Assembly: GCA_024103175.1 (NCBI GenBank)
Contig: JAGFJE010000433.1
Location: 1-64,000, forward strand
Direction of reading: 5' to 3'
From: Phaeodactylibacter sp.
Lineage (GTDB): Bacteria > Bacteroidota > Bacteroidia > Chitinophagales > Saprospiraceae
Length of the DNA: 64,000 nt
Position 1 is the stretch's first letter; each line of letters starts with the position of its first letter. Shown here in pieces: positions 14,583 to 32,347 of the stretch. A program made the translations under genes and the position numbers. The notes beneath the pieces were generated by a model that was not told where the DNA came from, ran no database searches, and saw only the letters and a list, made by a program, of their open reading frames with translations.

Positions 14583-15935
14583 ATGAAACATGATCTGGAA
14601 ATACACAGTGAAGAAGTACAAGATATTTTCGGTGCGGTTTCTCCCTGGGTCATCAGGAGCGGCATTGGAGCCATCCTTTTAATTCTCATTTCCATTATCA
14701 CAGTCAGCTGGTTCATTAAATACCCGGAAACAGTCAGGGCGGAGTTAAGTATAATTTCTGAAAAACCCCGCGCAAGGCTGATCGCCCGCACTCAGGGCAC
14801 CTTAAAGTTTCTTGTCAAAGAAGAAGATCAAGTAAAGAAAGGGGAATGGCTCTCAGTCATCGATAATGCTGCGGATGTGCATGATGTCCTTCGCTTAAAA
14901 CGAGATTTTGCCGAAATTACTGAAGAGAATCAAGTTGGAGGGCCCTTAGGCCAGATCCTCGATAAATACTTTAAAGAAGATCTAAAGTTAGGAGAACTGG
15001 AAAATTCGTATCTAAGGTTTATCCAAGCCAAAAGGGATTACGAATTGGCAAAAGCCTCCAACCTGAAAGAAATACAAATTAAAGAATTTGAAAAACAAAT
15101 AATATTCCAGAAAGAATTGATAGAAAATTTTAAGAAACAAAAAAAAACCAGCGAAAAGCAATTGGAGTTATCCAGAAGAAAATATGAAACCAACAAAAAA
15201 TTATTAGAACAGGGAGTAATTTCGAAAATAGATTTCAACGAAATATTCAATCAATTATTGCATCAGGAGAAAAACGTATATTTGATTGAGGAAAAGATGA
15301 TCTCCACTCAAAAGGAGGTGTCAGTCTTTGAGAACAGGCTAACTGAGATCAAAGCAACGGCATTGGAGAACATAGAGATACAAAAGGGGAATCTATGGGA
15401 TGCTGTAAACTTGATCATTGCCGACCTAAGATCTTGGGAGCAAATGTATGTATTGAAAGCGCCTATAGATGGTACCGTACATTTTGTAAAGTATTGGGAA
15501 GACAATCAGGTAGCCAGTCCAGGAGAAGAGATACTCACCGTATTGCCGAACGAAGAAAAGATCATTGGTGTTGCCATGCTTCCAATGACAGGCTCCAGCG
15601 AGGTTCAAGTAGGGCAACAAGTTCAAGTTTCATTACTGAGTTATTCAAGCATTGAATACGGATATCTATTGGGGGAGATCTTTCAAATCAGTACAATCCC
15701 TCAGGACCTGATGTACAGAGTAATGATAGAATTTCCAGATGAGCTTAAAACCACCTATGGCTTTGAAATCGAGTTCCAACAAGAATTATTTGGTGTCGCA
15801 GAAATAATAACATCCGACCTAAGATTGATAGAACGGTTTTATCATAAACTAATAAAAGCATTTGAGGCAAAACCTGATAAAGTGATCACTAATGAAGAAA
15901 AACGCCCGAGTAATATTCCCCAAAGTATTAACTAG
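14583..15935 (+). CDS. HlyD-family membrane fusion protein of a peptide exporter
   Basis: A 450-residue periplasmic adaptor. A cytoplasmic head of about 25 residues is followed by one transmembrane helix (about residues 26-47, GIGAILLILISIITVSWFI). A lipoyl/biotinyl-like half motif follows (residues 65-95, TQGTLKFLVKEEDQVKKGEWL), then a long coiled-coil hairpin (about 110-270), and the second lipoyl half with YVLKAPIDGTVHFVKYWEDNQV at about 290-310. Such proteins bridge an inner-membrane ABC exporter to an outer-membrane channel. Here the natural partner is the C39-peptidase exporter encoded at 22.4-24.6 kb. No TolC-like channel gene is in the window. It is the first gene of a tightly packed operon, and the LanB gene starts 44 bases before its stop in another frame. 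Confidence 0.85.
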   Translation: MKHDLEIHSEEVQDIFGAVSPWVIRSGIGAILLILISIITVSWFIKYPETVRAELSIISEKPRARLIARTQGTLKFLVKEEDQVKKGEWLSVIDNAADVHDVLRLKRDFAEITEENQVGGPLGQILDKYFKEDLKLGELENSYLRFIQAKRDYELAKASNLKEIQIKEFEKQIIFQKELIENFKKQKKTSEKQLELSRRKYETNKKLLEQGVISKIDFNEIFNQLLHQEKNVYLIEEKMISTQKEVSVFENRLTEIKATALENIEIQKGNLWDAVNLIIADLRSWEQMYVLKAPIDGTVHFVKYWEDNQVASPGEEILTVLPNEEKIIGVAMLPMTGSSEVQVGQQVQVSLLSYSSIEYGYLLGEIFQISTIPQDLMYRVMIEFPDELKTTYGFEIEFQQELFGVAEIITSDLRLIERFYHKLIKAFEAKPDKVITNEEKRPSNIPQSIN

Positions 15936-18618
15936 GATCGCCGGGGGAGTTTTTCAAGATCTTGAAAAACTAAATTCACCAGAGTTAGAAAAACATACTA
16001 AAAAGCTATTTGATTTACATGCCAGAATAGAGGATTCCAAAAATACAATTAGCCAGGAACTCCTTGATTTTTGTCACAGCCTAAGCGAAAGAAAAGTACA
16101 AAATATCATTCAGAATTATCGAAGAGACCTGTACAATGGCCGCCTCAAAAGAAATGAACCGCAAGAGGCGGTATTCGATCTATTACCTGCCTCTATTGTA
16201 GAAAAGGCCATTCAGCATCAAAAGCTGCAAGACGAATATCAATCCTTACTAAAAAGTGGGGAAGAATTATTTGAAAATGAAGCTGCGAACAAAAGAGAGT
16301 CTTTAATGGCCCTGGCCCAAAAGGAGCACCTGAATAAAGGATTGACTTTATCAAGCCATACGCTTTATGAAAGGATCAAACACTTTACAAGAGGTAAAAA
16401 CCTGAAAAACAAAAAAGCAAGGCAAACCGAAATCGGGTTGCTCAAGTATTTATCACGCATATATGCCAAGACTTCGCCTTTCAGTACATTTACCAGCATC
16501 TGCTTGGCAGAAGTTGACCCGGCGACGAAAGGTATTGCATTAAAAGAAAAGGAGGCGCTCGAGAACAGGAATGTTGTGAGATTGAATAATTTTATTTTCC
16601 GGTCCATAAAAACAGCACTTTTTAATTGTCGGCTTTCTTTCTATCATTTCCCGGTAAGCCTCAACCCCTCGATTTTCAGAGAATCATCTCAGTTTCGATA
16701 TCTCATCAATTTTAATAATATAGAATCCATAAAAAGGATCGAGAGTAACCAGGTGTTGGAAGAAATATTTTCTTTACTCAAGAATACTGATGCGCCGCCG
16801 TCTTTCGGAAACCTGGCTCAAGCCTTGATAAAAATTGTAGCTGCATCTGATGCTGAGGTCGAACAGTATCTACTGACCCTTATAAATAACGGCTTCCTGG
16901 AATTCAATCTTCCCGTTTCAGGTATTGACCCCAATTGGGATCAAGCCTTAGCCCATTTTTTAAAATGCCTGAACCTTGACGACAATCCGATAATTGAAAG
17001 GACTATTTCTATATTAACTTCTCTGAGGCACCAGTGCGATGAATTAGGCAGATATGACGCTGCTCAAAGAAAAAAATCCATTCAGCAAGCCTATACAGAG
17101 CTTGTCGAATACTTCATACACATAGAAAAAGAATACATATTTAAAGAGCGGCCTGTGCCTAATCACGAAAATAACCAATCTGCATATTTCAGATTGAAGC
17201 CTGAGAATGTTTTTTACGAAGATACTGCTACTGGCCTGAATGTTACAATCGGAAATAAAGAACTGGATGATTTATTAGAAAGAGTAGACAAACTGATAGT
17301 AGGGCTCAATTATTTTGAGCCGATCTCAGCACAAAGAAAAGGCCTCAGCCAGTTTTTTAATCGGAAATACGGGCCGGAGAATGAGATTCCATTGCTAACT
17401 TTTTACGAAGATTATTTTCGGTTTATACATGAGGCAAACAAGAAAAAAAAAGAAGAGAACAAAAATTGGCCTGTTATTTATTTTCCCACTAATAACCATT
17501 TTGAACAGCAAAAATGGAAGGATCACTTCGCAAAGCGCATATTTGAAAAGCTTCCTGAACAACATACAGAAACAATCCATATCGAAGAAGAGGATCTTTC
17601 GAAGGTGAATGAAATCGTTGGAACCATTGATACAGAAATACAATCTTCTTATTCTTTATTTTCGCAATTATTCAGGGGAAAGGACGGAGGGCTGATGGCC
17701 ACGGTGAACATTCTCACAATAGGATATGGAAAGATGTTCAGCAGGTTTTTACACATTTTTGAAAAGCCTCTCATTGATCAAGTGAGGAAGTGGAATGATC
17801 ATGGCGCCGACGAATATTTAATGGTTGAAGAACATGACGCTTCCTATTTTAATGCAAATTTACATCCTCCCATGTTAGACTACGAAATCCTGATACCCGG
17901 GGGGCATTCTCAATTGCCAAAAAACAAGCAGCTTTTGGTATCTGACCTGACAATAAAATATTCGAAAAAGGAAAATGAGTTAAAACTATACAGCCCGGAA
18001 CTAAAACGAAGCTTATCTGTCCATGACATGGGGTTCCAAAGCCTTAATGGCAGATCCAAATTATTTGATTTATTGAATAAGTTCACTCAATGCCGGCTGG
18101 TTATGAGAATGTTAATTCATTCCGCCTTGAGGAAACATTCCAACGATTCCGCACAGGAAGGCAAGGCTTTCAACTCCAAAATTGATTTTAGGCCCCGAGT
18201 TGTCTTCGAAGACAAGATTATTCTGCAAAGAAAATACTGGATTGTCGATAAGGATGAAATCCCTCAAAAAAGTACAGAAGAATCAGATTGGCATTATTTT
18301 GTCAAATTAGATCATTGGAGGCGGTCACATGGTATGCCAACGGAGATTTTCATCGTAATCAATCCTCATTTGAAAGGGAACCTGCAAAGTAGAATAAAAA
18401 AAGAAATAAACAGCGATGATACCAAACCACAATATATCAATTTTTCCAATTTGTTCCTTGTAAAACTTTTCGAAAAAAGTTCTAAAAGAGTAATGAAAAA
18501 AATGTCAATAGTAGAAATGCTTCCCAACTCCCGGCAACTGCTTAAAACCAATAAGGGTGAAAAATACGTTTCTGAGTTTGTAATTCAATGGCACCTGACC
18601 AACAGCGATTCAAAATGA
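15892..18618 (+). CDS. Lantibiotic dehydratase, LanB N-terminal (glutamylation) domain protein
   Basis: A 908-residue protein matching the N-terminal part of class I lanthipeptide dehydratases. Known LanB enzymes use glutamyl-tRNA to glutamylate Ser and Thr of the precursor and then eliminate glutamate. Here only the glutamylation part is present. Visible family marks are RIYAKTSPFSTFTSI at about residues 189-202 (equivalent of the usual R-x-SPRxTPFG segment) and the ending EMLPNSRQLL...YVSEFVIQWHL close to the C-terminus. The elimination domain is a separate gene directly downstream, an arrangement known from Bacteroidota such as the pinensin producer. Its start lies inside the HlyD gene and its stop overlaps the next start, so all are co-translated. 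The DNA is visibly AT-richer than the flanking chromosome. Confidence 0.88.
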   Translation: MKKNARVIFPKVLTRIAGGVFQDLEKLNSPELEKHTKKLFDLHARIEDSKNTISQELLDFCHSLSERKVQNIIQNYRRDLYNGRLKRNEPQEAVFDLLPASIVEKAIQHQKLQDEYQSLLKSGEELFENEAANKRESLMALAQKEHLNKGLTLSSHTLYERIKHFTRGKNLKNKKARQTEIGLLKYLSRIYAKTSPFSTFTSICLAEVDPATKGIALKEKEALENRNVVRLNNFIFRSIKTALFNCRLSFYHFPVSLNPSIFRESSQFRYLINFNNIESIKRIESNQVLEEIFSLLKNTDAPPSFGNLAQALIKIVAASDAEVEQYLLTLINNGFLEFNLPVSGIDPNWDQALAHFLKCLNLDDNPIIERTISILTSLRHQCDELGRYDAAQRKKSIQQAYTELVEYFIHIEKEYIFKERPVPNHENNQSAYFRLKPENVFYEDTATGLNVTIGNKELDDLLERVDKLIVGLNYFEPISAQRKGLSQFFNRKYGPENEIPLLTFYEDYFRFIHEANKKKKEENKNWPVIYFPTNNHFEQQKWKDHFAKRIFEKLPEQHTETIHIEEEDLSKVNEIVGTIDTEIQSSYSLFSQLFRGKDGGLMATVNILTIGYGKMFSRFLHIFEKPLIDQVRKWNDHGADEYLMVEEHDASYFNANLHPPMLDYEILIPGGHSQLPKNKQLLVSDLTIKYSKKENELKLYSPELKRSLSVHDMGFQSLNGRSKLFDLLNKFTQCRLVMRMLIHSALRKHSNDSAQEGKAFNSKIDFRPRVVFEDKIILQRKYWIVDKDEIPQKSTEESDWHYFVKLDHWRRSHGMPTEIFIVINPHLKGNLQSRIKKEINSDDTKPQYINFSNLFLVKLFEKSSKRVMKKMSIVEMLPNSRQLLKTNKGEKYVSEFVIQWHLTNSDSK

Positions 18619-19559
18619 AGGAATGGTTGTCTGTCCATCTTTTTTTCGCGGGTTCCCTCTCGGCATTCATTGTCGAAGCCATCGTGCCTTTCTTGCAGTA
18701 TGCGAAGCGGGATGGCTTTATTGACCGTTACTTTTTCATCCGGTATGGGGAAGGCGGGCAACACATCAGGCTTCGGTTTTATACAGAAAAGCAAAAACAT
18801 GAAGAACTGAAAGCGCTTGTTTCCTCAATGTTTTCGGATTATTTCCAACACAACCCTTCAAAGAGAAAATATCATACGGATAGAGGCCTTTACCCGAACA
18901 ATTCTGTACAATATATTGACTATGAACCCGAAACAGACAGGTACGGAGGGGTGCAAGCACTAATGATTGCAGAAAACCAGTTTATGGTTTCCTCTGAAAC
19001 TATCATTGAGGAATTGTTGAAACACCGCGAGAAATGGACTTATGACCTGGCCATTGGAACAGGGTTCAAACTTCACGTCGGTTTCGCAAAAGCAGCAGGG
19101 ATACCCGCTTTGTGCGCTTCATTTTTTTTTCAATGCCTGGCCAATTCATGGATATCCAAAGCTTCAAAAGTATTTCAAAACAAGTCAAAAAATCAATTTG
19201 CTGAAACAAGAACAATATTTGAAAATCTCTTCCAACAAGGCAAGTCGCGTTATCTTGAGTATACCAAAGCAATATTCGAGGCCGGGCGAACAGAATGGAT
19301 TGAAGACCCAATTCTCAAGAAATGGATTGAATCAAATGAAAGGATATGTCGTTCATTCCAGTGCCTGCAAGCTGAAGGGAATATTAACTACCCACCTTGC
19401 TCCGAAGCGATCAAAAAAAATACTTGTTTTCACCCGATTTGGCCTATTTATTTCAGCCTTCTCCATATGACTAATAACAGGCTGGGGGTAGGCAATCGCG
19501 ATGAAGCATTTCTTTTTTACCTGCTCTATAGATCGTTCGGGTGGATCTCCAAAAATTGA
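18615..19559 (+). CDS. LanB elimination-domain protein (SpaB_C / thiopeptide-type)
   Basis: A 314-residue protein of the SpaB C-terminal or thiopeptide-type bacteriocin biosynthesis family, the second half of a split LanB that would eliminate glutamate from glutamylated Ser/Thr to give dehydro-residues. The family start WLSVHLFF, the basic strand FFIRYGEGGQHIRLRF (residues about 40-55, likely glutamate-binding arginines), and PETDRYGGVQALMIAENQF (about 118-136) are all present, with late helical segments ending in GNRDEAFLFYLLYRSF. A frame nine codons longer begins at 18588, but the ATG at 18615 makes an ATGA overlap with the LanB stop and directly precedes the family start. The metallophosphoesterase gene follows after three bases. 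Confidence 0.87.
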   Translation: MKEWLSVHLFFAGSLSAFIVEAIVPFLQYAKRDGFIDRYFFIRYGEGGQHIRLRFYTEKQKHEELKALVSSMFSDYFQHNPSKRKYHTDRGLYPNNSVQYIDYEPETDRYGGVQALMIAENQFMVSSETIIEELLKHREKWTYDLAIGTGFKLHVGFAKAAGIPALCASFFFQCLANSWISKASKVFQNKSKNQFAETRTIFENLFQQGKSRYLEYTKAIFEAGRTEWIEDPILKKWIESNERICRSFQCLQAEGNINYPPCSEAIKKNTCFHPIWPIYFSLLHMTNNRLGVGNRDEAFLFYLLYRSFGWISKN

Positions 19560-19562
19560 CCC

Positions 19563-20327
19563 ATGAAAGCCGCTGTATTTTCAGATATACACGAAGATGT
19601 GGCCGCATTAGAAAAAGCGATCGCTAAGACAGAAACCCTGGGATGCCAGGAAATAATCTGTTTAGGCGATATTGTAGGGTTTAGCGTACCTTTTTATGAC
19701 CATTTAACTTCCAGGAATGCCTCAAAGTGCATCGAGCTAATAAAAGATACTTGTTCTGTCATAGTGCTTGGCAACCACGACTTATTTGCGATCAAACAGC
19801 TTCCTTTTCCATTACACCCCTTACTAAATTTGCCTGCCGACTGGTACACAATGGATTATCCGGAGAGAAAAAAAATTGCCAACGGCAATTTTTGGCTTTA
19901 TGAGAATGAACTAGACACGTTGATTTCAAAAGAAGACAAAGAGTTCCTGTCAAGCCTTTCCGAGTTTGTTGCCAAAAGTTATGGCAAGGGCATTAACGTA
20001 CTATTTTCCCATTTTCTATTTCCTGACCTCACAGGTTCGGGGAAATGGTCTTTGCGTATTAGAGAACTCTTGCCTGATCACATTGCTTTTTGCCGGGAGA
20101 AAAAGTGCAAGGTCAGCTTTGTTGGGCACGGGCATCCGGTCAAACCCCTTATCATCTCAGAGAATAACGAATTATTTCCCCTTGATTTTGAAGGTTCGAT
20201 AGTACTGGATCCGAGTATTGGAATAAATATAGTAATGGTACCCGCCATAGGCAATAGAAAGGGCAAGAAGGGGTTCACTGTTTTTGATAGTGATAAATTG
20301 GAACTGTCAGCCATTCCGATCGGATAA
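19563..20327 (+). CDS. Calcineurin-like metallophosphoesterase in the lanthipeptide operon
   Basis: A 254-residue protein with the full metal-binding set of the metallophosphoesterase superfamily: D8 and H10 in SDIHED, D36 in LGDIVG, N71-H72-D73 in LGNHDLF, an isolated His in LFSHF, and the closing GHGHPV. It is predicted to be a cytoplasmic phosphomonoesterase or phosphodiesterase holding two metal ions. The substrate cannot be told. It is translated directly after the LanB elimination gene (3-base gap) as the fourth gene of the operon, which ties it to the pathway. Because an RNA ligase and a nucleotidyltransferase lie in the same island, an RNA-end phosphatase or cyclic phosphodiesterase role is an attractive guess, but a general nucleotide phosphatase is equally possible. 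Confidence 0.85.
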   Translation: MKAAVFSDIHEDVAALEKAIAKTETLGCQEIICLGDIVGFSVPFYDHLTSRNASKCIELIKDTCSVIVLGNHDLFAIKQLPFPLHPLLNLPADWYTMDYPERKKIANGNFWLYENELDTLISKEDKEFLSSLSEFVAKSYGKGINVLFSHFLFPDLTGSGKWSLRIRELLPDHIAFCREKKCKVSFVGHGHPVKPLIISENNELFPLDFEGSIVLDPSIGINIVMVPAIGNRKGKKGFTVFDSDKLELSAIPIG

Positions 20328-20337
20328 AAAAACAAAA

Positions 20338-22194
20338 TTAGTGCTTTCCTTTAGAAATAGTGGCTGGATGCTTTTGGCTGTTTTTTGCAATTTCTATTGC
20401 TTTTAAAAGGAATTCATCCTTTTTCTCTTTTACTCCTTCAATTGTTTTATTAACGTATACATCAGGCAATATTCCGATGCCATGCAATTTGGAACCATCG
20501 TGCTTAACCACCTTTAAGCCAGTCCATTGAACATAGTAATTGCCAGGTAATTTAAATGGATGGATATTCCCATTTGTCCCCGCACTAGGTTGGCCCACAA
20601 TAGTGCCTAAATGATAATGTTTTATAAAACTCATAAAACTCTCTGCATAGCTAATCGCCCGTGCATCCAGGATAAACACTAAATTGGCATTAATTTTTGG
20701 AGTCCGGGGCCTAAGGTACCATCCCTTGCCCAAATAGGTGACATTTTCCTGATCCGGATATCGGATCTGGGGATATTTCATCCAATACCGGCTGGTATCT
20801 ACTTCGGACATAAAATTGCCTAATAAAGTGTGAGGCACATTTCTTGGATACCCTCTCATGTCAAAAATGATGGACGTATAATTATTAAGCTCGGGGATCA
20901 GGCCCTCGATATCTTTTCCAATTTCGTCCAGATTGATATATAGAATGGAGCTGTCAATTTCCATTTTAGCCGGATGGCCCTCTCTTGACAATAAGGAATA
21001 ACCGGATTTCACTGGAAGGCTTCTAATAAGGGTTTCCCGATGTACACCTGTCTCATTTCGATAAGAAATTTCCACTTTTTCTCCTTCAGGCCCCAACAGG
21101 GCATCCAAAGCCGTATGGTGGTCATTGTACCCAGGAGTTGGGTTTGGAACCAATTGCCTTAGGCTGTCGATGACCTGTCTGGCAGGTTGGCCATTAATAG
21201 CCACAACTATATCTCCCGGGCGAATCGAAATATTATTCTCAAATATACCAGAGACTACAAGTTCACCTTCTATCCATTCCCATCTAATTGGCAGGTAATA
21301 CTGTGCCGTGACATCGCCTTTCAAAATAGCCATGCCGTGTCCATCATCAGATGCGGCCAACAGTTTTTTCAGGGTGGCCAGGTGGTCATACACCGTTTGG
21401 TCCGAATACGAAGCTTTAAGCGCCATACGTAAAGCCTGCTCCCACTCTTTTTCCCTTCCTTCCAAATAGGGATAAAAATGCTGGAATACATTCCAGCAAT
21501 TAATGACATTACCCAGGCGGGTGAACAACTGAGCGCCTGAAAGCGCGTCCTTATCCGTTCCACTTTCAAAAGCTTTCCAATCCTCGAACATTGCTTGGCT
21601 GGCCTTGGGGTATGTATGTTCCGAATCGCCATAAAGCGCTAGTGGAGATTGACAAACCAATCCGCTGCCAATATCTCTTTCAAAGGATTCTCCTATTTGG
21701 GGGTGTCCAACGTAGAGGATTATCTCTTTACGGTTGGTCCTTATGCTTTTGAACCTGCTTTTACCTCTTGTAAAATGGTTGCCAAACCCAACGCCTAAAT
21801 GTTGCCAGGTTACTGTTTTATAATTTTCCTTTGAAGGAGGAGTAATGTCTTCAATGTTGAACGGAATGGGTTCATGCGCTGGAAAAATCTTCAGGGTAGG
21901 CGCAACAAATGAAAACGTTTCTTCAAGGATCTGTTTGAGTTCCTGAGTATCTCTGGCTTTTACCACATTCATAGCTCCGTAGATAGCGAACAGGTCCCAA
22001 TCTAGCTCGAAGGCTTCATCACTGGGGTGGAAATACTTTACATAACCGTATACCTTAGCAAAAGAATAAAGGTTTTCAACAGAACGGCCAGGCGCCATTG
22101 AACTCGTCGCACTCTGCGTTTGCGCATAGGCCGAATGCAAGAAAACACTTCCACAAAATAACAAAGTCAGCATTTGATCTTTGTACCCTCTCAT
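20338..22194 (-). CDS. Secreted S41-family (tail-specific-type) serine protease with PDZ domain
   Basis: A 618-residue exported protein. A signal peptide lies at residues 1-24 (cut near AYAQ). A helical N-terminal region (about 35-270) precedes a PDZ-like segment (NNISIRPGDIVVAINGQPARQVIDS, about 315-340) and the S41 catalytic core (about 410-600). The core keeps IIFDMRGYPRN, FILDARAISYAESFMSF with the predicted nucleophilic Ser in SYAES, and GQPSAGTNGN. S41 proteases cut peptides near their C-termini in the periplasm. It lies convergent to the metallophosphoesterase gene (10-base gap) and divergent from the C39 exporter, inside the lanthipeptide island, so leader trimming or degradation of the product (immunity) are both thinkable. 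That role is inferred from position only. Confidence 0.83.
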   Translation of the reverse strand: MRGYKDQMLTLLFCGSVFLHSAYAQTQSATSSMAPGRSVENLYSFAKVYGYVKYFHPSDEAFELDWDLFAIYGAMNVVKARDTQELKQILEETFSFVAPTLKIFPAHEPIPFNIEDITPPSKENYKTVTWQHLGVGFGNHFTRGKSRFKSIRTNRKEIILYVGHPQIGESFERDIGSGLVCQSPLALYGDSEHTYPKASQAMFEDWKAFESGTDKDALSGAQLFTRLGNVINCWNVFQHFYPYLEGREKEWEQALRMALKASYSDQTVYDHLATLKKLLAASDDGHGMAILKGDVTAQYYLPIRWEWIEGELVVSGIFENNISIRPGDIVVAINGQPARQVIDSLRQLVPNPTPGYNDHHTALDALLGPEGEKVEISYRNETGVHRETLIRSLPVKSGYSLLSREGHPAKMEIDSSILYINLDEIGKDIEGLIPELNNYTSIIFDMRGYPRNVPHTLLGNFMSEVDTSRYWMKYPQIRYPDQENVTYLGKGWYLRPRTPKINANLVFILDARAISYAESFMSFIKHYHLGTIVGQPSAGTNGNIHPFKLPGNYYVQWTGLKVVKHDGSKLHGIGILPDVYVNKTIEGVKEKKDEFLLKAIEIAKNSQKHPATISKGKH

Positions 22195-22375: not shown

Positions 22376-24577
22376 ATGAAAAGCTTTCCCGTATATAGAC
22401 AATTAGATAGCATTGACTGTGGGCCTGTCTGCTTGAAGGCCATTGCCAAACACTACGGAAGGACCATTCCCCTCGAATTGATACGAGAAAAAAGTTATAT
22501 CACTAATCAAGGTACGTCTATCGCTAATTTGGGGGTTGCCGCCGAGGAACTTGGATTCAGGACCCTAAGCGCCAAGCTACCTTTTGAGAACTTAAAAGAA
22601 GACGCCCCTCTGCCTTTAATCGCATTCTGGCGATCTAGGCATTTTGTAGTGGTTTACAAGTTCCGCAAAGGTAAAGTATATGTTGTTGACCCTGCCATCG
22701 GGGCAATAAAGTATAGCGAAAAGGAATTTAAAAAAGCATGGCTGAATGAGAAGGTTGATGGAAAAAAAACGGGCGTTGCCTTAATGTTGGAACCGACCCC
22801 CAAATTCCATGAACCTTCCTATGTAAGTACCCGAAAAAACAGAAGGGAGAAAAGAAAACTTTCCTTTTTTGTAAAATATTTATGGCCCTACCGCAAATAT
22901 TTTCTCCAAATCATCATGGGGCTTCTGATTGGGAGCCTGATTCAACTCATCCTGCCTTTTCTTGCTCAAGCACTAGTGGATAAAGGGATCAACGGCCGCA
23001 ACCTCGGTTTTGTGAACCTCATATTGATAGCCCAGGTATTTTTGCACTTTAGTGGAGCAATTGCAGGCTTTGTAAGGTCTTGGATTTATCTACACCTAGG
23101 TGTTAGAATCAATATTGCCATCATTTCAGATTTCCTCATTAAAGTATTGAAACTTCCAGTCTGGTTTTTTTCATCCCGTTCAGTGGGCGACCTCATGCAA
23201 AGGATCGGAGACCATAAACGGATTGAAAGTTTTCTTACCGGATCGCTACTCAATATTATCTTTTCTGTTTTCAACTTTTTTGTATTCTCAGCCATATTAA
23301 TTTTTTATCACATAAAAATATTTTTAATATTTTTGGCTGGAAGTATATTGTATATCATATGGATATTGCTCTTTCTAAATATAAGAAAGACCATGGATTA
23401 CAAAATGTTTGATCAACAATCCGATAATAAAAACACGCTAATAGAGTTGTTCCAGGGAGTTCAGGAGATTAAGCTACAAAACTGCGAGCAGAAAAAAAGA
23501 TGGAAGTGGGAGCGAATTCAGGCCAGTTTATTCAAAACGAGAATGAAAATGACTATTTTCGGCCAGTACCAATCTGGAGGAGCAATGCTCATTAACCAGA
23601 TAAAAAGCGTCGTGATTTCCTACGTTGCAGCAAAAAGTGTGATTTCCGGAGAGATCACTTTTGGAATGATGCTGGCTATTCAGTATATCCTAGGCCAGGC
23701 CACCGCTCCGATCGGCAGTTTCGTTCAATTTATCACCAATGCACAAATGGCTAAGATCAGCCTTGAACGCCTGAATCAAATTCATCAAAAACGAAATGAA
23801 GAAGATGAAGACAAAAAATTTGTAACCATCTACCCTGAAGACAGGTCGATCAACCTCATCCACCTGGGCTATCAATATCACGGCCCCAAATCGCCATTTG
23901 CGATCCAGGACATTAATATTAAAATTCCGGAGGGAAAGATAACAGCAATTGTCGGAGCAAGCGGCAGTGGAAAAACAACTCTTATCAAGTTATTACTTAA
24001 ATTTTATTACCCTTCAAGTGGAAGCATAAAGTTAGGAGGGGTTAACTTAAAAAATATTAGTGCAAAATGGTGGCGTGATAAATGCGGGGCCGTTTTACAA
24101 GATGGTTATATTTTTACAGACAGTATCGCCAACAATATCGCGGTAAATGATGACATCATTGATAAGGAAAGGCTGATTTATGCCGCATATGTAGCCAACA
24201 TCCAGGAATTTATCGAGTCTTTGCCAATGGGTTATAATACCAAGATAGGAGCCAATGGGCAGGGGATCAGCCAAGGGCAGAAGCAGAGAATATTGATTGC
24301 CCGCGCGGTCTACAAAGACCCCGATTATCTGTTTTTCGACGAGGCGACCAATGCTTTGGATTCAAAGAACGAACACATCATCATGCAGAGGTTGCAAGAA
24401 TTTTACAAAGGAAGGACCGTAGTCGTTGTAGCTCACCGGATGAGCACTGTTAAATCCGCTGATCAAATAATCGTATTGGACAATTCCAGGTTGATCGAAA
24501 AAGGCACCCATGCTGAACTGGTAAAAAAACGAGGCATCTATTACAACCTGATAAGAAATCAATTAGAACTGCATTGA
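22376..24577 (+). CDS. C39-peptidase ABC exporter (PCAT) for double-glycine leader peptides
   Basis: A 733-residue peptidase-containing ABC transporter. The C39 cysteine protease domain (residues 1-135) has its catalytic Cys 15 in DCGPVC, His 89 in SRHFVVVY and Asp 105 in VVDPAIG. It cuts leaders after Gly-Gly. Six transmembrane helices lie at about 165-450. The nucleotide-binding domain (about 500-733) shows Walker A GASGSGKTT, signature GISQGQKQR, Walker B LFFDEATNALD and the His switch VVAHRMS. All three precursor genes of the island carry a GG site, so this exporter most likely cleaves and exports them with the HlyD adaptor. Its gene ends 7 bases before the convergent LanC gene. Class I lanthipeptides normally rely on LanP subtilases, so this pairing is notable. 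Confidence 0.92.
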   Translation: MKSFPVYRQLDSIDCGPVCLKAIAKHYGRTIPLELIREKSYITNQGTSIANLGVAAEELGFRTLSAKLPFENLKEDAPLPLIAFWRSRHFVVVYKFRKGKVYVVDPAIGAIKYSEKEFKKAWLNEKVDGKKTGVALMLEPTPKFHEPSYVSTRKNRREKRKLSFFVKYLWPYRKYFLQIIMGLLIGSLIQLILPFLAQALVDKGINGRNLGFVNLILIAQVFLHFSGAIAGFVRSWIYLHLGVRINIAIISDFLIKVLKLPVWFFSSRSVGDLMQRIGDHKRIESFLTGSLLNIIFSVFNFFVFSAILIFYHIKIFLIFLAGSILYIIWILLFLNIRKTMDYKMFDQQSDNKNTLIELFQGVQEIKLQNCEQKKRWKWERIQASLFKTRMKMTIFGQYQSGGAMLINQIKSVVISYVAAKSVISGEITFGMMLAIQYILGQATAPIGSFVQFITNAQMAKISLERLNQIHQKRNEEDEDKKFVTIYPEDRSINLIHLGYQYHGPKSPFAIQDINIKIPEGKITAIVGASGSGKTTLIKLLLKFYYPSSGSIKLGGVNLKNISAKWWRDKCGAVLQDGYIFTDSIANNIAVNDDIIDKERLIYAAYVANIQEFIESLPMGYNTKIGANGQGISQGQKQRILIARAVYKDPDYLFFDEATNALDSKNEHIIMQRLQEFYKGRTVVVVAHRMSTVKSADQIIVLDNSRLIEKGTHAELVKKRGIYYNLIRNQLELH

Positions 24578-24584
24578 CCTGATT

Positions 24585-26633
24585 TCAACTTATTGCAGCC
24601 ACCTGAATAAAGTTATTCCTTGCTAAAACAGCCGTTTGATCCAACACTTTCTGCCCCACGGCCTCCCGGTCAACTTGATTTTCGATTTCTAATTCTTGAA
24701 AGACAAGCTCCGCCAGGTCAAAAACAGAAATCTCTTGCCTGATTTCTATTTGGCTCAACAAAAAATAATTGAACCTGGTAATTGAGTACTGTTTTGTAGT
24801 TTTGCCGTCAAAGGTGCTGAAAATAAAAACCTCCTGCCCTCTATCGGCCTCTTGGGCCCCCCAGTGGCCAGCCAACCAGTTCCACTCTAACCTAAACAGT
24901 GCAGAAGCCGGTTTGCTTTTCAGGATCAACTGAGAGTCTTTAATTTTACCGGAACTTAATCCATAGAATGCTTGAGAGAAATTTTTTCGGTTGATGAAAT
25001 GTAAAGTACTCAAATAAAAATTCCCATGAGATGTGTTTGGCAATTGCCAGTTCTTTAGTTCAAAATCGAAAACCTCTTTTATCAATTTCGAGTCAGGCAG
25101 TTTGTCTATCACGGCCTGTATTCTTTCGACAAAAGGCTCAAGCCCCTCGTCTCTATTATTCGCAAATAAGGATTGTTCAAGGGTGGAAAACTCCTCCTCT
25201 CCGGCCAGATACTCCAGCAATGATAGCGTTCTTCGAAAAACATTTTTTGTACACCGGCTGAACAAACTCGACTCTGTGGCAAACAAGGATCCCGGCAGAG
25301 GGCCTTTGGCCACAATCGGGCCTGCAACAGAGGGTTTTATTATTGAGCTTTCTTTTCGATCAAGGTAGCTCACATAAAAATATCCTACTCCAGCAAGCCC
25401 CATGAATAGGCTGTAATCTTTGTCATCTTTACTTAGCTTGGCTAAGCCGGGCTGATACCTGCCATGGGAGCTGCAGTATTTGATTTGCCTGGCAATGGTT
25501 GCCTCTAACTGTTCTTCTATTGTTAAAGTTTCCCCATTCAATTCCTCAGCGCAATGGATTATAACCATGGCATTCCCACTTGTCCCATGGCAAAGGCAAT
25601 GACTGAACAAATGGCTCGAATTCAAGGATTGAATAGTGCTCTGAATCGATTTTTTCAAGTCATTTTTCCATAATTCAGAGCCTTGAGTTGATTTTAATTC
25701 AAACCTCGTCAAAGCGATACCTGGTGAACCATGACACCAGGCGTTCATATATTTAGGGCGGGTGAAATAAGATAGGTCTTCCAGGCTCTGAAAGCCATAT
25801 TTCTCCATATTGGCCTCACTATTCAACCTGGGTTTTCTGAAATCTTTCCAATTATTATTTTTTTTACTATAAAATTGATTTTCATAATTAAAACTTTGTT
25901 CTGCAATCCAATAATAAGCAGCGTTGTCGAACAATTTAGCCAATTGTATGAAAACATAACCAATCCCAGACGAACCATGGGAAAAACCCGTGAGGGGCCA
26001 TATCTCCCAACCCGTAATATCCCAAAAAATGCCACGCCTCCCCCACTTAACTCCATCGAGTAAGTGGTTGACATATTGTTCAATAAGTTGAAGTATCTCC
26101 TGGCTTTGTTTTTTCTCGTACAGGAAAAGCAGCCCCAGCAAAGCTCCCGCCGTCCCATTCAACAGGTCATATACCGGCGGGTCCCTCAACTCAATAAACC
26201 TGCCGCATTTTATAGCAAGCTCTTCTGCTTTTTCCAAATAGGCTTTCTCAGCCAACGATTCATATACTTTAAGCAAGGTATACACCACTCCCATCCTGCC
26301 AGTGTAAAAAGCATAATTGTCAGTAGGGTTTTCCCGGCAATACCGGTAAAGCCAGCCAACAGACTTAATAATAGCCTGCCGATATTTATCATCATTCGTT
26401 ATTTCATATAACCTGATGAAAAACAATATTATTCCGCTAACCCCTGAATAAACAGTTTCAAAGGCCTGAAAATAAATTTCCTCATCAATTACTTTCGGTG
26501 AGATCCAGAAATAGTTACCGTATTCATCCTCTTTCCTGGATTCGAGTATTTCTTCTCCAACTCTGATCAGCTCTTTAAAAACAGGTGAATGTTCCACAAA
26601 ACATATTTTTTTCCGGAAAGTTACTACTTTCAA
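24585..26633 (-). CDS. Lanthionine synthetase C-like cyclase with long C-terminal extension
   Basis: A 682-residue protein. Residues about 40-430 form the LanC alpha/alpha-barrel. The zinc ligands are Cys 300 in AWCHGSPG and Cys 348-His 349 in LCHGTSGN, and the catalytic-type His 219 lies in GFSHGSSG. It should add precursor cysteines to dehydro-residues to form (methyl)lanthionine rings. LanC proteins are usually about 400 residues. The extra 250 C-terminal residues have no family I recognise; their last 70 (FNYFLLSQIEIRQEISVF onwards) look like a small winged-helix-type fold, possibly a peptide-binding element. No in-frame ATG exists at the front, so the start appears to be TTG at 26631-26633. 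The gene is convergent with the exporter gene and divergent from the RNA ligase gene. Confidence 0.87.
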   Translation of the reverse strand: MKVVTFRKKICFVEHSPVFKELIRVGEEILESRKEDEYGNYFWISPKVIDEEIYFQAFETVYSGVSGIILFFIRLYEITNDDKYRQAIIKSVGWLYRYCRENPTDNYAFYTGRMGVVYTLLKVYESLAEKAYLEKAEELAIKCGRFIELRDPPVYDLLNGTAGALLGLLFLYEKKQSQEILQLIEQYVNHLLDGVKWGRRGIFWDITGWEIWPLTGFSHGSSGIGYVFIQLAKLFDNAAYYWIAEQSFNYENQFYSKKNNNWKDFRKPRLNSEANMEKYGFQSLEDLSYFTRPKYMNAWCHGSPGIALTRFELKSTQGSELWKNDLKKSIQSTIQSLNSSHLFSHCLCHGTSGNAMVIIHCAEELNGETLTIEEQLEATIARQIKYCSSHGRYQPGLAKLSKDDKDYSLFMGLAGVGYFYVSYLDRKESSIIKPSVAGPIVAKGPLPGSLFATESSLFSRCTKNVFRRTLSLLEYLAGEEEFSTLEQSLFANNRDEGLEPFVERIQAVIDKLPDSKLIKEVFDFELKNWQLPNTSHGNFYLSTLHFINRKNFSQAFYGLSSGKIKDSQLILKSKPASALFRLEWNWLAGHWGAQEADRGQEVFIFSTFDGKTTKQYSITRFNYFLLSQIEIRQEISVFDLAELVFQELEIENQVDREAVGQKVLDQTAVLARNNFIQVAAIS

Positions 26634-27879: not shown

Positions 27880-27892
27880 TCGAACAGCTATA

Positions 27893-27919
27893 CACCGCTC
27901 GGTCACCAGAGGTGAAAAT
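27893..27919 (+). repeat. IS630 left terminal inverted repeat
   Basis: The left end CACCGCTCGGTCACC-AGAGGTGAAAA pairs with the right end at 29016-29042, with differences mainly in the outermost ten bases. The same form recurs at the right end of the 164-bp non-autonomous element. Confidence 0.8.
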
Positions 27920-27923
27920 GTTG

Positions 27924-28886
27924 TCAAGCCACCTCAAGGAGCTGAAATTTAAGGTTCATCAACTCGTTGATTTCCTCCTCGTGCAACCCTTCATTGACTT
28001 CGTCAATAAAGTTGTCAATGGCTTCAACGAAGTCTTGCTTGGTTGGGTAATGGAAGCCAGCCAGGACTTGCTTTTTGAGGTATTTCCAAAACCGCTCGAT
28101 AAGGTTCAGGTTAGGGGAGTATGGGGGTAGGAAAACCAGGTGAACCCGGTATTTCCTGGCGGCCTTGGCCACCAATTCGCACCTTTGATAGCGGGCATTG
28201 TCCAAAACCAGGTATATGCTCCTTCCCGGCAATTCTTCGCGAAGGAAGCCAATGAGCTCGACAACCGTTGTGGCTTTGATATAATCAGTTGTGCTGATAC
28301 TGTACAATTCGTGCGTGGCAGCATGCATAGCTCCCAGGATGTTCACTCGCTGGCGGCCGCTTGACGTCCTTACTGAGATGGGCTTCTCGCTCCATACATG
28401 GCCGTTGTGAAAGCCTTGTACGGGGTGTGCCGCGTCGACAAAGAACACATCCGCCACTCCTCGTGTGGCCTTGTCCAGCAAGGGGTTCAACTCCTGCTCA
28501 AGGAAAGCCGCCTGCTTGGCAGCCAGCTCTTTGATAGGCAGCTTCCCTCCAGGCAGGGGGCGGAACTTACGATAGCGGAACTTGAGCACGTGCTTGACAA
28601 ATTTGCGCACTTGGCTCATTCCACGCTCCAAGCCGGTAAGCTGCTTGATCCGTTTGCGCGCCTCGCTGGCACAACGTGGCGGATCCTTGTCAAAATCTGC
28701 CTTGATCTTGTCGGCATAGTTCACCAAATCGCTGGAAGGGCGGTAGCACTCTACTGCCAGCAGCCCGGCCCGCCCCCGTTCCATATAGGCCTTCATCCAG
28801 CGGGTAACCGAATTGGGGTGCACATCAGCTACCTCGGCGCACGGGCCAGGCCGAAGCCCCTTGGCCCGAAGATATAGTACATGCAT
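27924..28886 (-). CDS. IS630-family transposase
   Basis: A 320-residue transposase. The N-terminal helix-turn-helix contains ADVHPNSVTRWMKAY (residues about 20-34). The DDE catalytic residues are visible as Asp 151 (VFFVDAAH), Asp 229 (LVLDNARYQ) and Glu 264 (NLIERFWKYLKK), with the FLPPYSPNLN signature before the Glu. The family usually has a further segment ahead of MHVLYLRAKG. Here the codons directly before the ATG read SPLIRQR but are closed by an in-frame stop, while another frame at 28898-28942 encodes a 14-residue start (MNTQDTTKSKVVHH). A one-base frameshift or a programmed shift may therefore separate the true N-terminus. The catalytic part is intact. The gene ends 31 bases from the left IS end. 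Confidence 0.9.
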   Translation of the reverse strand: MHVLYLRAKGLRPGPCAEVADVHPNSVTRWMKAYMERGRAGLLAVECYRPSSDLVNYADKIKADFDKDPPRCASEARKRIKQLTGLERGMSQVRKFVKHVLKFRYRKFRPLPGGKLPIKELAAKQAAFLEQELNPLLDKATRGVADVFFVDAAHPVQGFHNGHVWSEKPISVRTSSGRQRVNILGAMHAATHELYSISTTDYIKATTVVELIGFLREELPGRSIYLVLDNARYQRCELVAKAARKYRVHLVFLPPYSPNLNLIERFWKYLKKQVLAGFHYPTKQDFVEAIDNFIDEVNEGLHEEEINELMNLKFQLLEVA

Positions 28887-29015
28887 ACGTTGGCGGATTA
28901 ATGGTGAACAACCTTACTTTTTGTAGTATCTTGCGTGTTCATAGTCAGCTTCGCTGATTATCGGAGAGTACATATTTTACAGGTTTGGTTACCCACAAAG
29001 ATAGGTACTCTCCAA

Positions 29016-29042
29016 CTTTTCACCTCTAGTGACCGCGCTTAG
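29016..29042 (-). repeat. IS630 right terminal inverted repeat
   Basis: Read inward it begins CTAAGCGCGGTCAC, then TAGAGGTGAAAAG. It matches the left end of the 164-bp non-autonomous element almost completely. Confidence 0.8.
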
Positions 29043-29050
29043 TATATCTA

Positions 29051-29461
29051 TCAGACATACAAGCACCCACCCTCTGCAATGGAATCACAATCCGTATCTG
29101 TATCACATTCCCCTACGGAATCGCATTCACCTATTGTTTGCCCTTCATTTGGTATACAATAAGGGCCATCAGCTGAGGCACATAGATCATTGTCGGAATT
29201 GGGGTCACAAATCACCATATCGCTGTCGCAATTTGTGCCTATAGAATGGCAGAGGCCGTCGAAAGAGTCGCCTTGCCAAAAATCGATCAAAGTATTATCA
29301 TCGCACATTACGCCTACGACTGTCTCGCAGGGAGCACAGGTATTTTCCTGGCCAGTGCCGCCAATTACGTGTTCCATCCCGTTCCTACCCGGCTTGTCAT
29401 TCAAGGTAGTGACAAAACTTTGTATCCTCAGGTCGTCTAACTTGAGTTTTTGCCTGGACAT
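29051..29461 (-). CDS. Lanthipeptide-type precursor 1 (long, 12-Cys acidic core)
   Basis: A 136-residue precursor. The leader (1-35) has QKLKLDDLRIQSFVTTL and ends in HVIGG, a double-glycine site for the C39 exporter. The core of 101 residues holds 12 cysteines, many Asp and many Ser/Thr, and ends in GGCLYV. The leader is of the Bacteroidota class I (pinensin-like) type. Precursor 2 matches it through the last 65 residues: LCxS, CDP/CNP, NDLCAS/NNLCAS, PYCxP, CDSV, CDTxxDCDS and GGCLY in the same order. Known lanthipeptide cores are mostly 20-40 residues, so this core is unusually long. The gene lies 27 bases after precursor 2 on the same strand. The IS630 element sits 7 bases behind its stop. 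Confidence 0.88.
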   Translation of the reverse strand: MSRQKLKLDDLRIQSFVTTLNDKPGRNGMEHVIGGTGQENTCAPCETVVGVMCDDNTLIDFWQGDSFDGLCHSIGTNCDSDMVICDPNSDNDLCASADGPYCIPNEGQTIGECDSVGECDTDTDCDSIAEGGCLYV

Positions 29462-29488
29462 AGGTCAAAATTTGATAATGCGGAAGTT

Positions 29489-29923
29489 TTACGAATACAA
29501 ACACCCTCCCGGAGCTTTGGAATCACAATCATCAACAGTATCGCAACCACCGGCAACCACAGAATCACAATCCTGGATTGTTGGAGTGCAATACGGGCTC
29601 CCGAACGCTTCCGAGGCACATAGATTATTTGAACTCATAGGGTTGCAGACAACCACATTCGAGCTGCAATCACTCTCGTCGGAAACACAAAGGTTTGCCG
29701 AATTATTTTCCCACGCATCTATACAAACATTGCCGTCAGCGCTTTGGCCATCACAGGCCCTGAAACTTTCTGTGTCGCACATGGCTTCACTATCTACAGG
29801 GTTATCGCACGGCCCAGTGGCATCCGTACCACCAATGATTCCCATTGCTTTCAAGCCAACTTCGTCCAAAACGGTAACAAAGCTTTGAATTCTGAGGTCT
29901 TCTAATTTAAGCTTTTCTTTCAT
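29489..29923 (-). CDS. Lanthipeptide-type precursor 2 (long, 13-Cys acidic core)
   Basis: A 144-residue precursor. The leader (1-32) contains MKEKLKLEDLRIQSFVT and ends in GIIGG. The core of 112 residues contains 13 cysteines spread evenly, with an Asp/Asn/Ser/Thr-rich background, and ends in GGCLYS. The C-terminal half is closely related to precursor 1, while the front of the core differs, as if the two arose by duplication and then diverged. The upstream region shares a block of about 30 bases with precursor 3 at the same distance from the ATG. It should be modified by the split LanB and the LanC of the island and exported by the C39 ABC transporter. Confidence 0.88.
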   Translation of the reverse strand: MKEKLKLEDLRIQSFVTVLDEVGLKAMGIIGGTDATGPCDNPVDSEAMCDTESFRACDGQSADGNVCIDAWENNSANLCVSDESDCSSNVVVCNPMSSNNLCASEAFGSPYCTPTIQDCDSVVAGGCDTVDDCDSKAPGGCLYS

Positions 29924-29956: not shown

Positions 29957-30069
29957 CCACATCCGACGCTTTGCCCACAGCACACATTGTCGATACTCAA
30001 AATAATAAAAGCTATTGGAAAACGGATAATTCGCCTTACCACGGGCGAAATCACATTTGGGAAATACTA
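29947..30069 (-). pseudogene. Possible remnant of a further precursor core
   Basis: Between the 164-bp element and precursor 2 a frame beginning at a GTG inside the gap ends with DNVCCGQSVGCGSI and a TAA just before the conserved upstream block. The Cys/Ser/Gly composition resembles a lanthipeptide core end, but there is no leader. It may be a decayed precursor gene or chance. Confidence 0.2.
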
Positions 30070-30071
30070 TA

Positions 30072-30235
30072 CTAAGCGCGGTCACCAGAGGTGATTTTTC
30101 TGAAACCCGCATAAAACCTGACCTTTTTATTATGAGTCTCAAAGTCCGCGTTATCACTGAAGGAAGTAACTTTTGGTTCCAAAAGCTAAGTCTCGGAGCA
30201 TTTGTCAACTTTTCACCTCTGGTTACCGAGGGGTG
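30072..30235 (+). mobile_element. 164-bp MITE-like relative of the IS630 element
   Basis: The left end (CTAAGCGCGGTCACCAGAGGTGA) equals the right end of the IS630 element. The right end, read inward (CACCCCTCGGTAACCAGAGG), equals the left end of the IS. TA flanks both sides (30070-30071 and 30236-30237). The inside has no open reading frame but contains a small palindrome (cttttggttccaaaag). It is a non-autonomous element probably moved by the IS630 transposase, in opposite orientation. It stands 6 bases after the stop of precursor 3 and so splits the precursor operon. Confidence 0.82.
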
Positions 30236-30242
30236 TATATCT

Positions 30243-30455
30243 CTACCAATCATCACATCCCGGAGGCGCAGTGAGACATAGCTCTGCTTCAGTTGGGTTA
30301 CACTGTGGGCCGTCTCTGGTTTCCGTTTGCCAATGGTCAAGCGGCGTTGTAATATCTGCCCCACCAACAATGCCTATATTGTTGATATCAATATTGTTCG
30401 AGGCTGTTACGAAGCTTTGGATTTTCAGGTCTTCCAACTTAAGCTTGTCTTCCAT
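30243..30455 (-). CDS. Lanthipeptide-type precursor 3 (38-residue, 3-Cys core)
   Basis: A 70-residue precursor. The leader (1-32) contains MEDKLKLEDLKIQSFVT and ends in GIVGG. The core of 38 residues starts ADITTP, has Cys 52, 60 and 67 and six threonines but no serine, and ends in GCDDW. Up to three thioether rings are possible. This is a size usual for lanthipeptides, in contrast to the long cores of precursors 1 and 2. It is the promoter-proximal gene of the precursor group. A MITE-like element follows 6 bases after the TAG stop, which lies outside the element, so the peptide is complete. Confidence 0.85.
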   Translation of the reverse strand: MEDKLKLEDLKIQSFVTASNNIDINNIGIVGGADITTPLDHWQTETRDGPQCNPTEAELCLTAPPGCDDW

Positions 30456-30688: not shown

Positions 30689-32347
30689 ATGAAAACCCGA
30701 AAAGAGCTTTTTGCTATTGCTAAAAAATTTATCGAAAAAGAATTTCCCGGATCAACAGCGGCTATGCTTACAGGAAGCGTTGTTTCAGGAACTTCCTCGA
30801 AGTTTTCAGACCTGGATATCATTATCGTGATCAACCGTGCAGAGGATCTGGGCAAGCATGAAAGGGTCAAAAATTACGAGGGGGTTCCTATTGATATGCT
30901 TATCATTCCCGAGACTCAATTGTACCGGGTGATGGAAAGAGACCTGAAATCAACTGCCGGCGCCATCATTCGGATGTTAAAAGAAGGCAGGATAATAAAA
31001 GACAATGACTCTTTTCTGGCAGATGCGCAAAATTATGCAAAAACGCTGTATTCAAATGGAAGGCCGTCGCCAAGCAGTGCTGAAATAAAAACAAAAATAA
31101 TTACCATCACAAAAAGGCTTGAGGACCTCAAATCTCCCTCGATCAGCGAAGGCGAGGCATTGTTCCTCGTTCTCGAAATTACAAGAGCGCTGGCTTACCT
31201 CAATCTGATTGCGAATAAAAAGTGGCCAGGCAAAGGAAAGCATCTTGCCAAAAACCTGGAAAACCTATCCTCTTCACTTTACAATGCTTTAGTGGCTAAG
31301 GCAACAAAAGCCATCGCAACAAATGAAAAGGAGCCGTTTATAAACCTCGCCAAAGAAAACCTTCAACTGTATGGAGGGCAGATTGACAGTTATTCTGCCT
31401 CAGAGTTTTTTGAAGATAAAATTCAAAACGAACGCATTACTTTTGAGATCAGAGGCAACTTGGATTATGATGACATCATAATCCACTTCCTTCTTCCGCT
31501 TCAGGATAAACTCACTGGCGGCAGCTATAAGCAGATCCAATTCCAGAGCTACGGAACGCTTTCCAATTCCGTCCTCATTTCCATATCCGGAAAATATGAA
31601 TTCCTTAAGAATATTGTCCTTCCTATTGTTGAAAAACACACCATGGCCTTTTCAGAGATAGCTCCATCAGGCAGGATTGTTATCCAATATAAGGAGTGGG
31701 AAGAATTTCCAATAGAATTCGGTGGGCAAGAAGCATTCAACGCGTTGGAGGGCCTTCGGGGCCAGCTGGGAAACACCGCCTTAATTATTTTCAGAAAACA
31801 TGCTGATGAATGGAACCAGGATATTGCTGTTTCCCAGGCATTGTTTTTGGTAATTGGGGTAATTAAAAGTTCAAGTATTACAAATATAAGCCAATATATA
31901 AGTTATTTATATAATGAATGGATCAAATATACGTTAGCCCGGGATGCGGAATACATCAAACCCAATTACAATAATGTTCAGCAAACGAACCTCAAAAAGT
32001 TCGAAACCCTATACCAAGGAAACTACCTTGCTATCTCCCGGTCTTACAAAAAATTTTTGCTCAAAGGCCTTGATGAACTGGAAATTGAAAATGACTGGTT
32101 TGCAGATTGGATAACAGAGGCTAAACGAGCAGATGGCCTTTTAAACAACATTCCGGAACAAAAAATGAAAGTATACGAATTCAAAAAGAACAACATCCCT
32201 AGCAGTATTCCGGAACAAGAACGAAACCTATATGTTATTTACAAAAGCCTGATAAGATCTGTATTTGATATTTTTGGAGTCAAACCTTTAAATATCCATT
32301 ATTCTGTATTTCTTTTAAAGAAGCTGTTGGAGCAGGAGCAAGAATAG
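30689..32347 (+). CDS. Nucleotidyltransferase with a SpaB_C-like (LanB elimination-like) domain
   Basis: A 552-residue protein. Residues 1-110 are a pol-beta-type nucleotidyltransferase with LTGSVVSGTSSKFSDLDII, the GS-x(n)-DxD core. A helical part (about 130-235) follows, similar in kind to HEPN-like partners of such enzymes. Residues about 245-400 resemble the island's LanB elimination protein when aligned by eye: IIIHFLLP with SVHLFF, FQSYGTLSNSVLISIS with FIRYGEGGQHIRLRF, IQYKEWEEFPIEFGGQEA with QYIDYEPETDRYGGVQA. The arginines of the R-x-R strand are missing, so elimination activity is doubtful. Its position at the island's end, divergent from the precursors, supports a role in the pathway. 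The fusion is my reading, not a database result. Confidence 0.7.
   Translation: MKTRKELFAIAKKFIEKEFPGSTAAMLTGSVVSGTSSKFSDLDIIIVINRAEDLGKHERVKNYEGVPIDMLIIPETQLYRVMERDLKSTAGAIIRMLKEGRIIKDNDSFLADAQNYAKTLYSNGRPSPSSAEIKTKIITITKRLEDLKSPSISEGEALFLVLEITRALAYLNLIANKKWPGKGKHLAKNLENLSSSLYNALVAKATKAIATNEKEPFINLAKENLQLYGGQIDSYSASEFFEDKIQNERITFEIRGNLDYDDIIIHFLLPLQDKLTGGSYKQIQFQSYGTLSNSVLISISGKYEFLKNIVLPIVEKHTMAFSEIAPSGRIVIQYKEWEEFPIEFGGQEAFNALEGLRGQLGNTALIIFRKHADEWNQDIAVSQALFLVIGVIKSSSITNISQYISYLYNEWIKYTLARDAEYIKPNYNNVQQTNLKKFETLYQGNYLAISRSYKKFLLKGLDELEIENDWFADWITEAKRADGLLNNIPEQKMKVYEFKKNNIPSSIPEQERNLYVIYKSLIRSVFDIFGVKPLNIHYSVFLLKKLLEQEQE

What the first reader, a model, noticed from the sequence alone, without database searches (positions are those of the whole stretch)
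29051..29923. Two unusually long, acidic, Cys-rich lanthipeptide precursor cores
The cores after the GG site are 101 and 112 residues with 12 and 13 cysteines and contain a shared order of motifs up to GGCLY(V/S). Lanthipeptide cores are generally several times shorter. If fully ringed they would be among the largest lanthipeptides, or they could be metal-binding or multi-module products.
Basis: seen in the sequence. Interest (0 to 1): 0.85.

Follow-up and report, generated by a model that had tools for sequence, protein, structure and literature searches.

The report
Two extra-long, Cys-rich lanthipeptide precursors
A bacterium of the phylum Bacteroidota carries a peptide-antibiotic-type gene cluster whose two main raw peptides are about twice as long as their relatives' and look built to be knotted into a chain of a dozen small sulphur rings; the cluster type is known, but these are its longest plain examples found here, longer than the size limit used in one large genome survey.

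Summary
The minus-strand genes at 29051-29461 (136 aa) and 29489-29923 (144 aa) have cores of 101 and 112 residues after Gly-Gly, with 12 and 13 Cys and net charges of -22 and -18. A third paralogue at 30243-30455 has an ordinary 38-residue core. All three pass the cut-off of NCBIfam leader_pinensin. The neighbourhood is a pinensin-type class I cluster: split LanB, LanC, C39-peptidase ABC exporter and HlyD. Selection on the cores is purifying. In the long cores 11/12 and 13/13 Cys have a Ser/Thr 3-7 residues upstream with no Cys between (shuffle p about 1e-4 and 1e-3), the layout of a chain of small (methyl)lanthionine rings; only mass spectrometry can show the rings. Among 60 related precursors cores have median 48.5 and maximum 78 residues (setting aside three with a Hint domain), so these two are extremes of a known kind. 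A large survey capped precursors at 120 aa and would skip them. Core-only searches find no other family. Unexpected neighbours: an RNA ligase beside LanC, a nucleotidyltransferase fused to a degenerate LanB C-terminal domain, and a PqqD-like tail on LanC. Verdict: new variant of a known kind, moderately interesting.

The parts
29489..29923 (-). Precursor P2: pinensin-type leader (32 aa, ends GG) plus 112-aa core, 13 Cys, 21 Ser/Thr
29051..29461 (-). Precursor P1: leader (35 aa, ends GG) plus 101-aa core, 12 Cys, 15 Ser/Thr
30243..30455 (-). Precursor P3: same leader type, ordinary 38-aa core, 3 Cys
15892..18618 (+). LanB N-terminal (glutamylation) protein, 908 aa
   Evidence: PF04738 5.7e-40
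18588..19559 (+). LanB C-terminal (elimination) protein, 323 aa, with FIRY..HIRLR and HMTNNRLG motifs (read by eye)
   Evidence: PF14028 4.7e-39, TIGR03891 1.1e-28
24585..26633 (-). LanC cyclase (zinc motifs GFSHG, WCHG, LCHG) with a C-terminal extension ending in a PqqD/RRE-like domain
   Evidence: PF05147 3.3e-64; fold Z 37.5 to LicM2, 32.7 to NisC; PqqD in 3 of 20 homologous tails
22376..24577 (+). C39-peptidase ABC exporter: leader removal at GG and export
   Evidence: PF03412 5.3e-33, PF00005, PF00664
14583..15935 (+). HlyD-type membrane fusion protein
   Evidence: PF13437 1.6e-9
19563..20327 (+). Metallophosphoesterase, 3 bp after the LanB C-terminal gene; role unknown
   Evidence: PF00149 6.1e-10; no homologue in the related loci
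20338..22194 (-). S41 peptidase with signal-peptide-like N-terminus; possible trimming protease
   Evidence: PF03572 5.3e-12; homologues beside LanC in L136 and L144
26728..27879 (+). T4 Rnl1-type RNA ligase, divergent from lanC
   Evidence: PF09511 3.4e-13; 49% identical copy in the same arrangement in L136
30689..32347 (+). Nucleotidyltransferase domain fused to a degenerate LanB C-terminal-like domain (residues about 331-547)
   Evidence: PF01909 1.1e-6; LanB_C profile E 2.3e-11 in the window ORF set

Best explanation
P1 and P2 are class I lanthipeptide precursors of the pinensin-leader type. The leader (KLKLxDLRIQSFVT...GG) recruits the split LanB and the LanC; LanB dehydrates Ser/Thr in the core, LanC adds Cys to them and makes a linear series of small, mostly non-overlapping (methyl)lanthionine rings (up to 12-13), and the C39 exporter cuts after GG and secretes a polycyclic, very acidic product of about 10-11 kDa. 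Shown: gene content, leader family, coding constraint, Ser/Thr-Cys spacing. Inferred: that the rings form, how many, and that the core stays in one piece. The product's biological role is not known; a secreted competition or signalling peptide is the default guess.
For: Leader family above curated cut-off in all three precursors. LanB_N, LanB_C, LanC, C39-ABC and HlyD within 16 kb. LanC model with high confidence and LanC fold; GFSHG, WCHG and LCHG motifs present in the window protein. Nearly every Cys has a Ser/Thr 3-7 upstream without a Cys between, above shuffles (P1 p 0.0001, P2 p 0.0009); also seen in several related precursors and not in BPTI, EGF or metallothionein. Thirteen Cys in P2 is an odd number. 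Core under purifying selection. No core match in Pfam or PDB and only chance-level hits in 395 genomes of the phylum outside this genome. Bacteroidota class I clusters from Chryseobacterium and Runella limosa, rebuilt in E. coli, gave 7 dehydrations, with three thioether rings shown for the Runella peptide (PMC9993889); R. limosa also carries a relative of this LanC (L138).
Against: No chemistry is shown. 7 of 15 (P1) and 7 of 21 (P2) Ser/Thr directly follow Asp/Glu, a context that NisB disfavours (from memory), so dehydration could be partial. The spacing result is not universal among relatives: several related cores do not exceed shuffles. The pinensin leader model also hits Cys-free peptides in other genomes, some beside no LanB/LanC, so the leader alone proves little.
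Confidence: 0.78

Rival explanations
1. The core is dehydrated and ringed only in part (for example the duplicated C-terminal C-x-S/T units), and the rest is a spacer or a second module that is cut off, possibly by the S41 peptidase.
For: P2 has a significant internal duplication TIQDCDSVVAGGC / TVDDCDSKAPGGC; the C-terminal half is the best conserved between P1 and P2; an S41 peptidase lies in the cluster and beside LanC in two others.
Against: The Ser/Thr-Cys layout runs through the whole core; no second leader is visible inside the core; P1 shows no significant internal repeat.
Confidence: 0.25
2. The cores are ordinary disulphide-bonded or metal-binding Cys-rich secreted domains that use the GG exporter and are not modified by LanB/LanC; only P3 is the lanthipeptide.
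For: High Cys and Asp content; the leader alone is not diagnostic, because Cys-free peptides carry it too.
Against: Same leader as P3; Ser/Thr before nearly every Cys, unlike textbook disulphide and metal proteins; odd Cys number in P2; no Pfam or PDB match; AlphaFold gives no confident fold (pLDDT 31.7, weak because only three sequences).
Confidence: 0.08
3. The products are lanthipeptides that are further joined to a nucleotide or RNA, or whose self-immunity works by RNA repair, through the RNA ligase and the nucleotidyltransferase-LanB_C fusion.
For: RNA ligase beside LanC in two distant Bacteroidota (49% identity, same divergent order); an RNA ligase, a NUDIX-ligase and a nucleotidyltransferase beside a C39 exporter in L210; the fusion protein lies next to P3; both genes are rare in relatives.
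Against: Only three loci; about 15 other RNA ligase loci have no LanB or LanC nearby; no precedent found in the papers searched.
Confidence: 0.08

Closest known systems
Pinensin-type class I lanthipeptide clusters (NCBIfam NF038180; LanA family I 17 of Walker et al. 2020, PMC7268733)
   Same: Leader motif, GG site, C39 exporter, split LanB, LanM-like LanC.
   Different: Cores of 101 and 112 residues with 12 and 13 Cys; precursors of 136 and 144 aa lie outside the 30-120 aa range searched in that survey.
Chryseobacterium artocarpi locus L136 (precursors with 56-68 aa acidic Cys-rich cores)
   Same: C39 exporter, extended LanC, LanB_C end at the locus edge, S41 peptidase, RNA ligase divergent from lanC, acidic Cys-rich cores of charge -13 to -19.
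   Different: Cores 56-68 residues with 6-9 Cys; two RNA ligases and a NUDIX; no nucleotidyltransferase-LanB_C fusion seen in the 21 kb held.
Pedobacter sp. KBW06 locus L127
   Same: Pinensin leader, two tandem long precursors, cores of 75 and 78 residues with 9 and 10 Cys and the same Ser/Thr-Cys spacing.
   Different: About 30 residues shorter, charge only -5, no RNA ligase.
Runella limosa and Chryseobacterium OV715 class I lanthipeptides (PMC9993889)
   Same: Bacteroidota class I systems shown by mass spectrometry to be dehydrated, with thioether rings shown for the Runella peptide.
   Different: Seven dehydrations and, in the Runella peptide, three rings; precursor sequences were not compared here.

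Membership tests
Class I lanthipeptide | LanB dehydratase (glutamylation and elimination domains) | tested here: met
   PF04738 and PF14028 on two adjacent genes
Class I lanthipeptide | Stand-alone LanC cyclase with zinc-binding motifs | tested here: met
   PF05147 3.3e-64; GFSHG, WCHG and LCHG motifs; LanC fold
Class I lanthipeptide | Precursor with leader and a Ser/Thr- and Cys-containing core | tested here: met
Class I lanthipeptide | Lanthionine or methyllanthionine rings in the product | not testable with these tools
   needs mass spectrometry
Pinensin-type leader family (NF038180) | Score above the curated cut-off of 24 bits | tested here: met
   32.1, 27.4 and 31.4 bits; the match covers positions 1-19 of 28
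Pinensin (the compound) | Core sequence similarity to pinensin and antifungal activity | not tested
   The pinensin core was not compared here; likeness is by cluster type only
Disulphide-rich or metal-binding secreted domain | Match to a known Cys-rich domain | tested here: not met
   No Pfam match up to E 10 and no PDB sequence match up to E 10 for either core

The most novel reading that the evidence does not exclude
A chain-of-rings lanthipeptide of about 11 kDa, far larger than classical lantibiotics, made with the help of nucleotide chemistry: an RNA ligase and a nucleotidyltransferase fused to a LanB elimination-like domain act on the peptide or protect its producer, so that 'RNA ligase plus C39 peptide exporter' marks a new kind of modified-peptide system.
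Probability: 0.07. Interest if true: 0.9.

Novelty: new variant of a known kind. Interest (0 to 1): 0.5.

Why it matters
If the cores are fully ringed they would be among the largest lanthipeptides and would test how far a LanB/LanC pair can work along one substrate; the PqqD-like tail on this LanC offers a possible reason. It also shows that precursors above 120 aa fall outside the length range of a large survey, so long lanthipeptides of Bacteroidota are probably under-counted.

Tried and rejected
Core-only homology: nothing outside this genome in 395 genomes of the phylum apart from chance-level hits, nothing in PDB or Pfam. A leader-based scan of 84,980 genomes gave no relative by tblastn. 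The idea that inverted repeats around P1-P2 mark a mobile precursor cassette was rejected: the arms are ends of the IS630-type element at about 27886-29049 and of a short element at about 30068-30242. The idea that P3 is a precursor cut short by that short element was rejected by eye: its stop codon lies before the insertion site. AlphaFold of the precursor gave no usable model, with only three sequences. The Pedobacter lusitanus chemistry paper was not held here.

Full report
What is there. On the minus strand three paralogous precursor genes lie side by side: P1 29051-29461, P2 29489-29923 and P3 30243-30455. All three score above the curated cut-off of NCBIfam NF038180 (pinensin family leader). 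After Gly-Gly the cores are 101, 112 and 38 residues with 12, 13 and 3 Cys. P1 and P2 cores carry net charges of -22 and -18. The whole genome holds no other copy of this leader and no other relative of the core.

Are the genes real? P1 against P2: in the core pN is 0.35 and pS 0.75, in the leader pN 0.21 and pS 0.93. Synonymous sites are saturated while protein changes are held back, so both cores are under purifying selection. Of 14 aligned core columns with a Cys, 11 are Cys in both.

The surroundings. From left to right: HlyD (14583-15935), LanB N-terminal protein (15892-18618), LanB C-terminal protein (18588-19559), metallophosphoesterase (19563-20327), S41 peptidase (20338-22194, minus), C39-peptidase ABC exporter (22376-24577), LanC with an extension (24585-26633, minus), RNA ligase (26728-27879), an IS630-type transposase (27924-28886, minus), the three precursors, and a nucleotidyltransferase (30689-32347). 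Split LanB, GG leaders with C39 peptidase, and LanC proteins resembling LanM cyclase domains are the published marks of Bacteroidota class I clusters around pinensin (PMC7268733). The LanC here indeed matches LanM best and LicM2 best in PDB. Its model has mean pLDDT 88.8 and residues 8-439 take the LanC fold, Z 37.5 to LicM2 and 32.7 to NisC.

The layout of the cores. For each Cys I asked whether a Ser or Thr lies 3 to 7 residues upstream with no Cys in between, as a small lanthionine ring needs. P1 11 of 12 and P2 13 of 13; shuffles that keep Cys fixed give 6.1 and 8.6 (p 0.0001 and 0.0009). The pattern C-x-S/T occurs 7 times in each (p 0.0006 and 0.005). So the core reads as Cys, one spacer, Ser/Thr, a few residues, Cys, and so on: a chain of neighbouring rings. 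Related precursors show the same spacing in part (Pedobacter L127, some of L117, L118 and L136). BPTI, EGF and metallothionein do not exceed shuffles (a small control). P2 has an internal duplication of one such unit near its end.

How unusual is the length? In the loci fetched by a LanC-profile scan of genome contigs and in genomes of the order, 60 other pinensin-leader precursors have cores with median 48.5, 90th percentile 68 and maximum 78 residues. Three precursors of an Ignavibacteria bacterium (L106) are longer, 241-256 aa, but owe it to a Hint domain. P1 and P2 are thus the longest plain cores in this sample. The large RODEO survey accepted LanA candidates of 30-120 aa only, so 136 and 144 aa would be passed over.

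What it most likely does. The shared leader brings LanB and LanC to the core, Ser/Thr are dehydrated and Cys added, the C39 exporter cuts at GG and secretes the product. These are standard steps of the family; for Chryseobacterium OV715 and Runella limosa clusters the modification steps were reproduced in E. coli, with seven dehydrations, and three thioether rings in the Runella peptide (PMC9993889). Not shown for P1 and P2: any dehydration, any ring, the final size, the activity. Against complete modification: 7 of 15 and 7 of 21 Ser/Thr directly follow an acidic residue, a context NisB dislikes (own knowledge).

Extras that set this cluster apart. The last 75 or so residues of this LanC family resemble PqqD, the RiPP leader-recognition fold: 3 of 20 homologous tails hit PF05402, best 1.2e-5; the window's own tail does not hit by itself. 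The nucleotidyltransferase carries at residues 331-547 a second, degenerate LanB C-terminal domain without the HMxxNRLG motif, and no match to this protein turned up in the other genomes of a 110-genome relatives search. The RNA ligase has a 49% identical counterpart, also divergent from lanC, in Chryseobacterium artocarpi, where S41 peptidase and acidic Cys-rich precursors recur, and a 44% one beside a C39 exporter and another nucleotidyltransferase in G322. Both genes are rare in relatives. These links rest on few loci and are leads, not results.

Verdict. Observation confirmed; interpretation largely right, the novelty being one of degree. New variant of a known kind, interest 0.5.

Noticed in passing
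L106:12149-14547 (Ignavibacteria JAQTLX010000003.1): Three tandem pinensin-leader precursors of 241-256 aa in which a Cys-rich TCxxTC core is followed by a Hint domain (PF07591 7.3e-17 in the one scanned), next to LanB, LanC and a C39 exporter: possible self-cleaving lanthipeptide precursors. No paper found for Hint domain with lanthipeptide.
   Followed up: partly
window 30689-32347: Nucleotidyltransferase domain fused to a degenerate LanB C-terminal-like domain that lacks the HMxxNRLG motif; no match in the other genomes of a 110-genome relatives search.
   Followed up: partly
window 26728-27879; L136:8770-9900; L210:8594-10922: T4 Rnl1-type RNA ligases recur beside LanC or C39 peptide exporters, once with NUDIX and nucleotidyltransferase genes and a 161-aa acidic GG-leader peptide.
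   Followed up: partly
window 24585-24986 and homologues in A5: The C-terminal tail of this widespread 620-690 aa LanC family looks like a PqqD/RRE leader-binding domain.
   Followed up: partly
L033-L061, genus g230 and others: The 'pinensin family lanthipeptide' model also hits short peptides without any Cys (for example ...KGGHYVKGRQYTYRTRWTAVDTRAD); several in other genera lie beside a conserved protein of about 512 aa with no LanB or LanC seen nearby. The family name may mislead there.
   Followed up: partly
window 27886-29049 and 30068-30242: An IS630-type element between the RNA ligase and P1, and a short 175-bp element with the same 27-33 nt ends just downstream of P3.
   Followed up: yes
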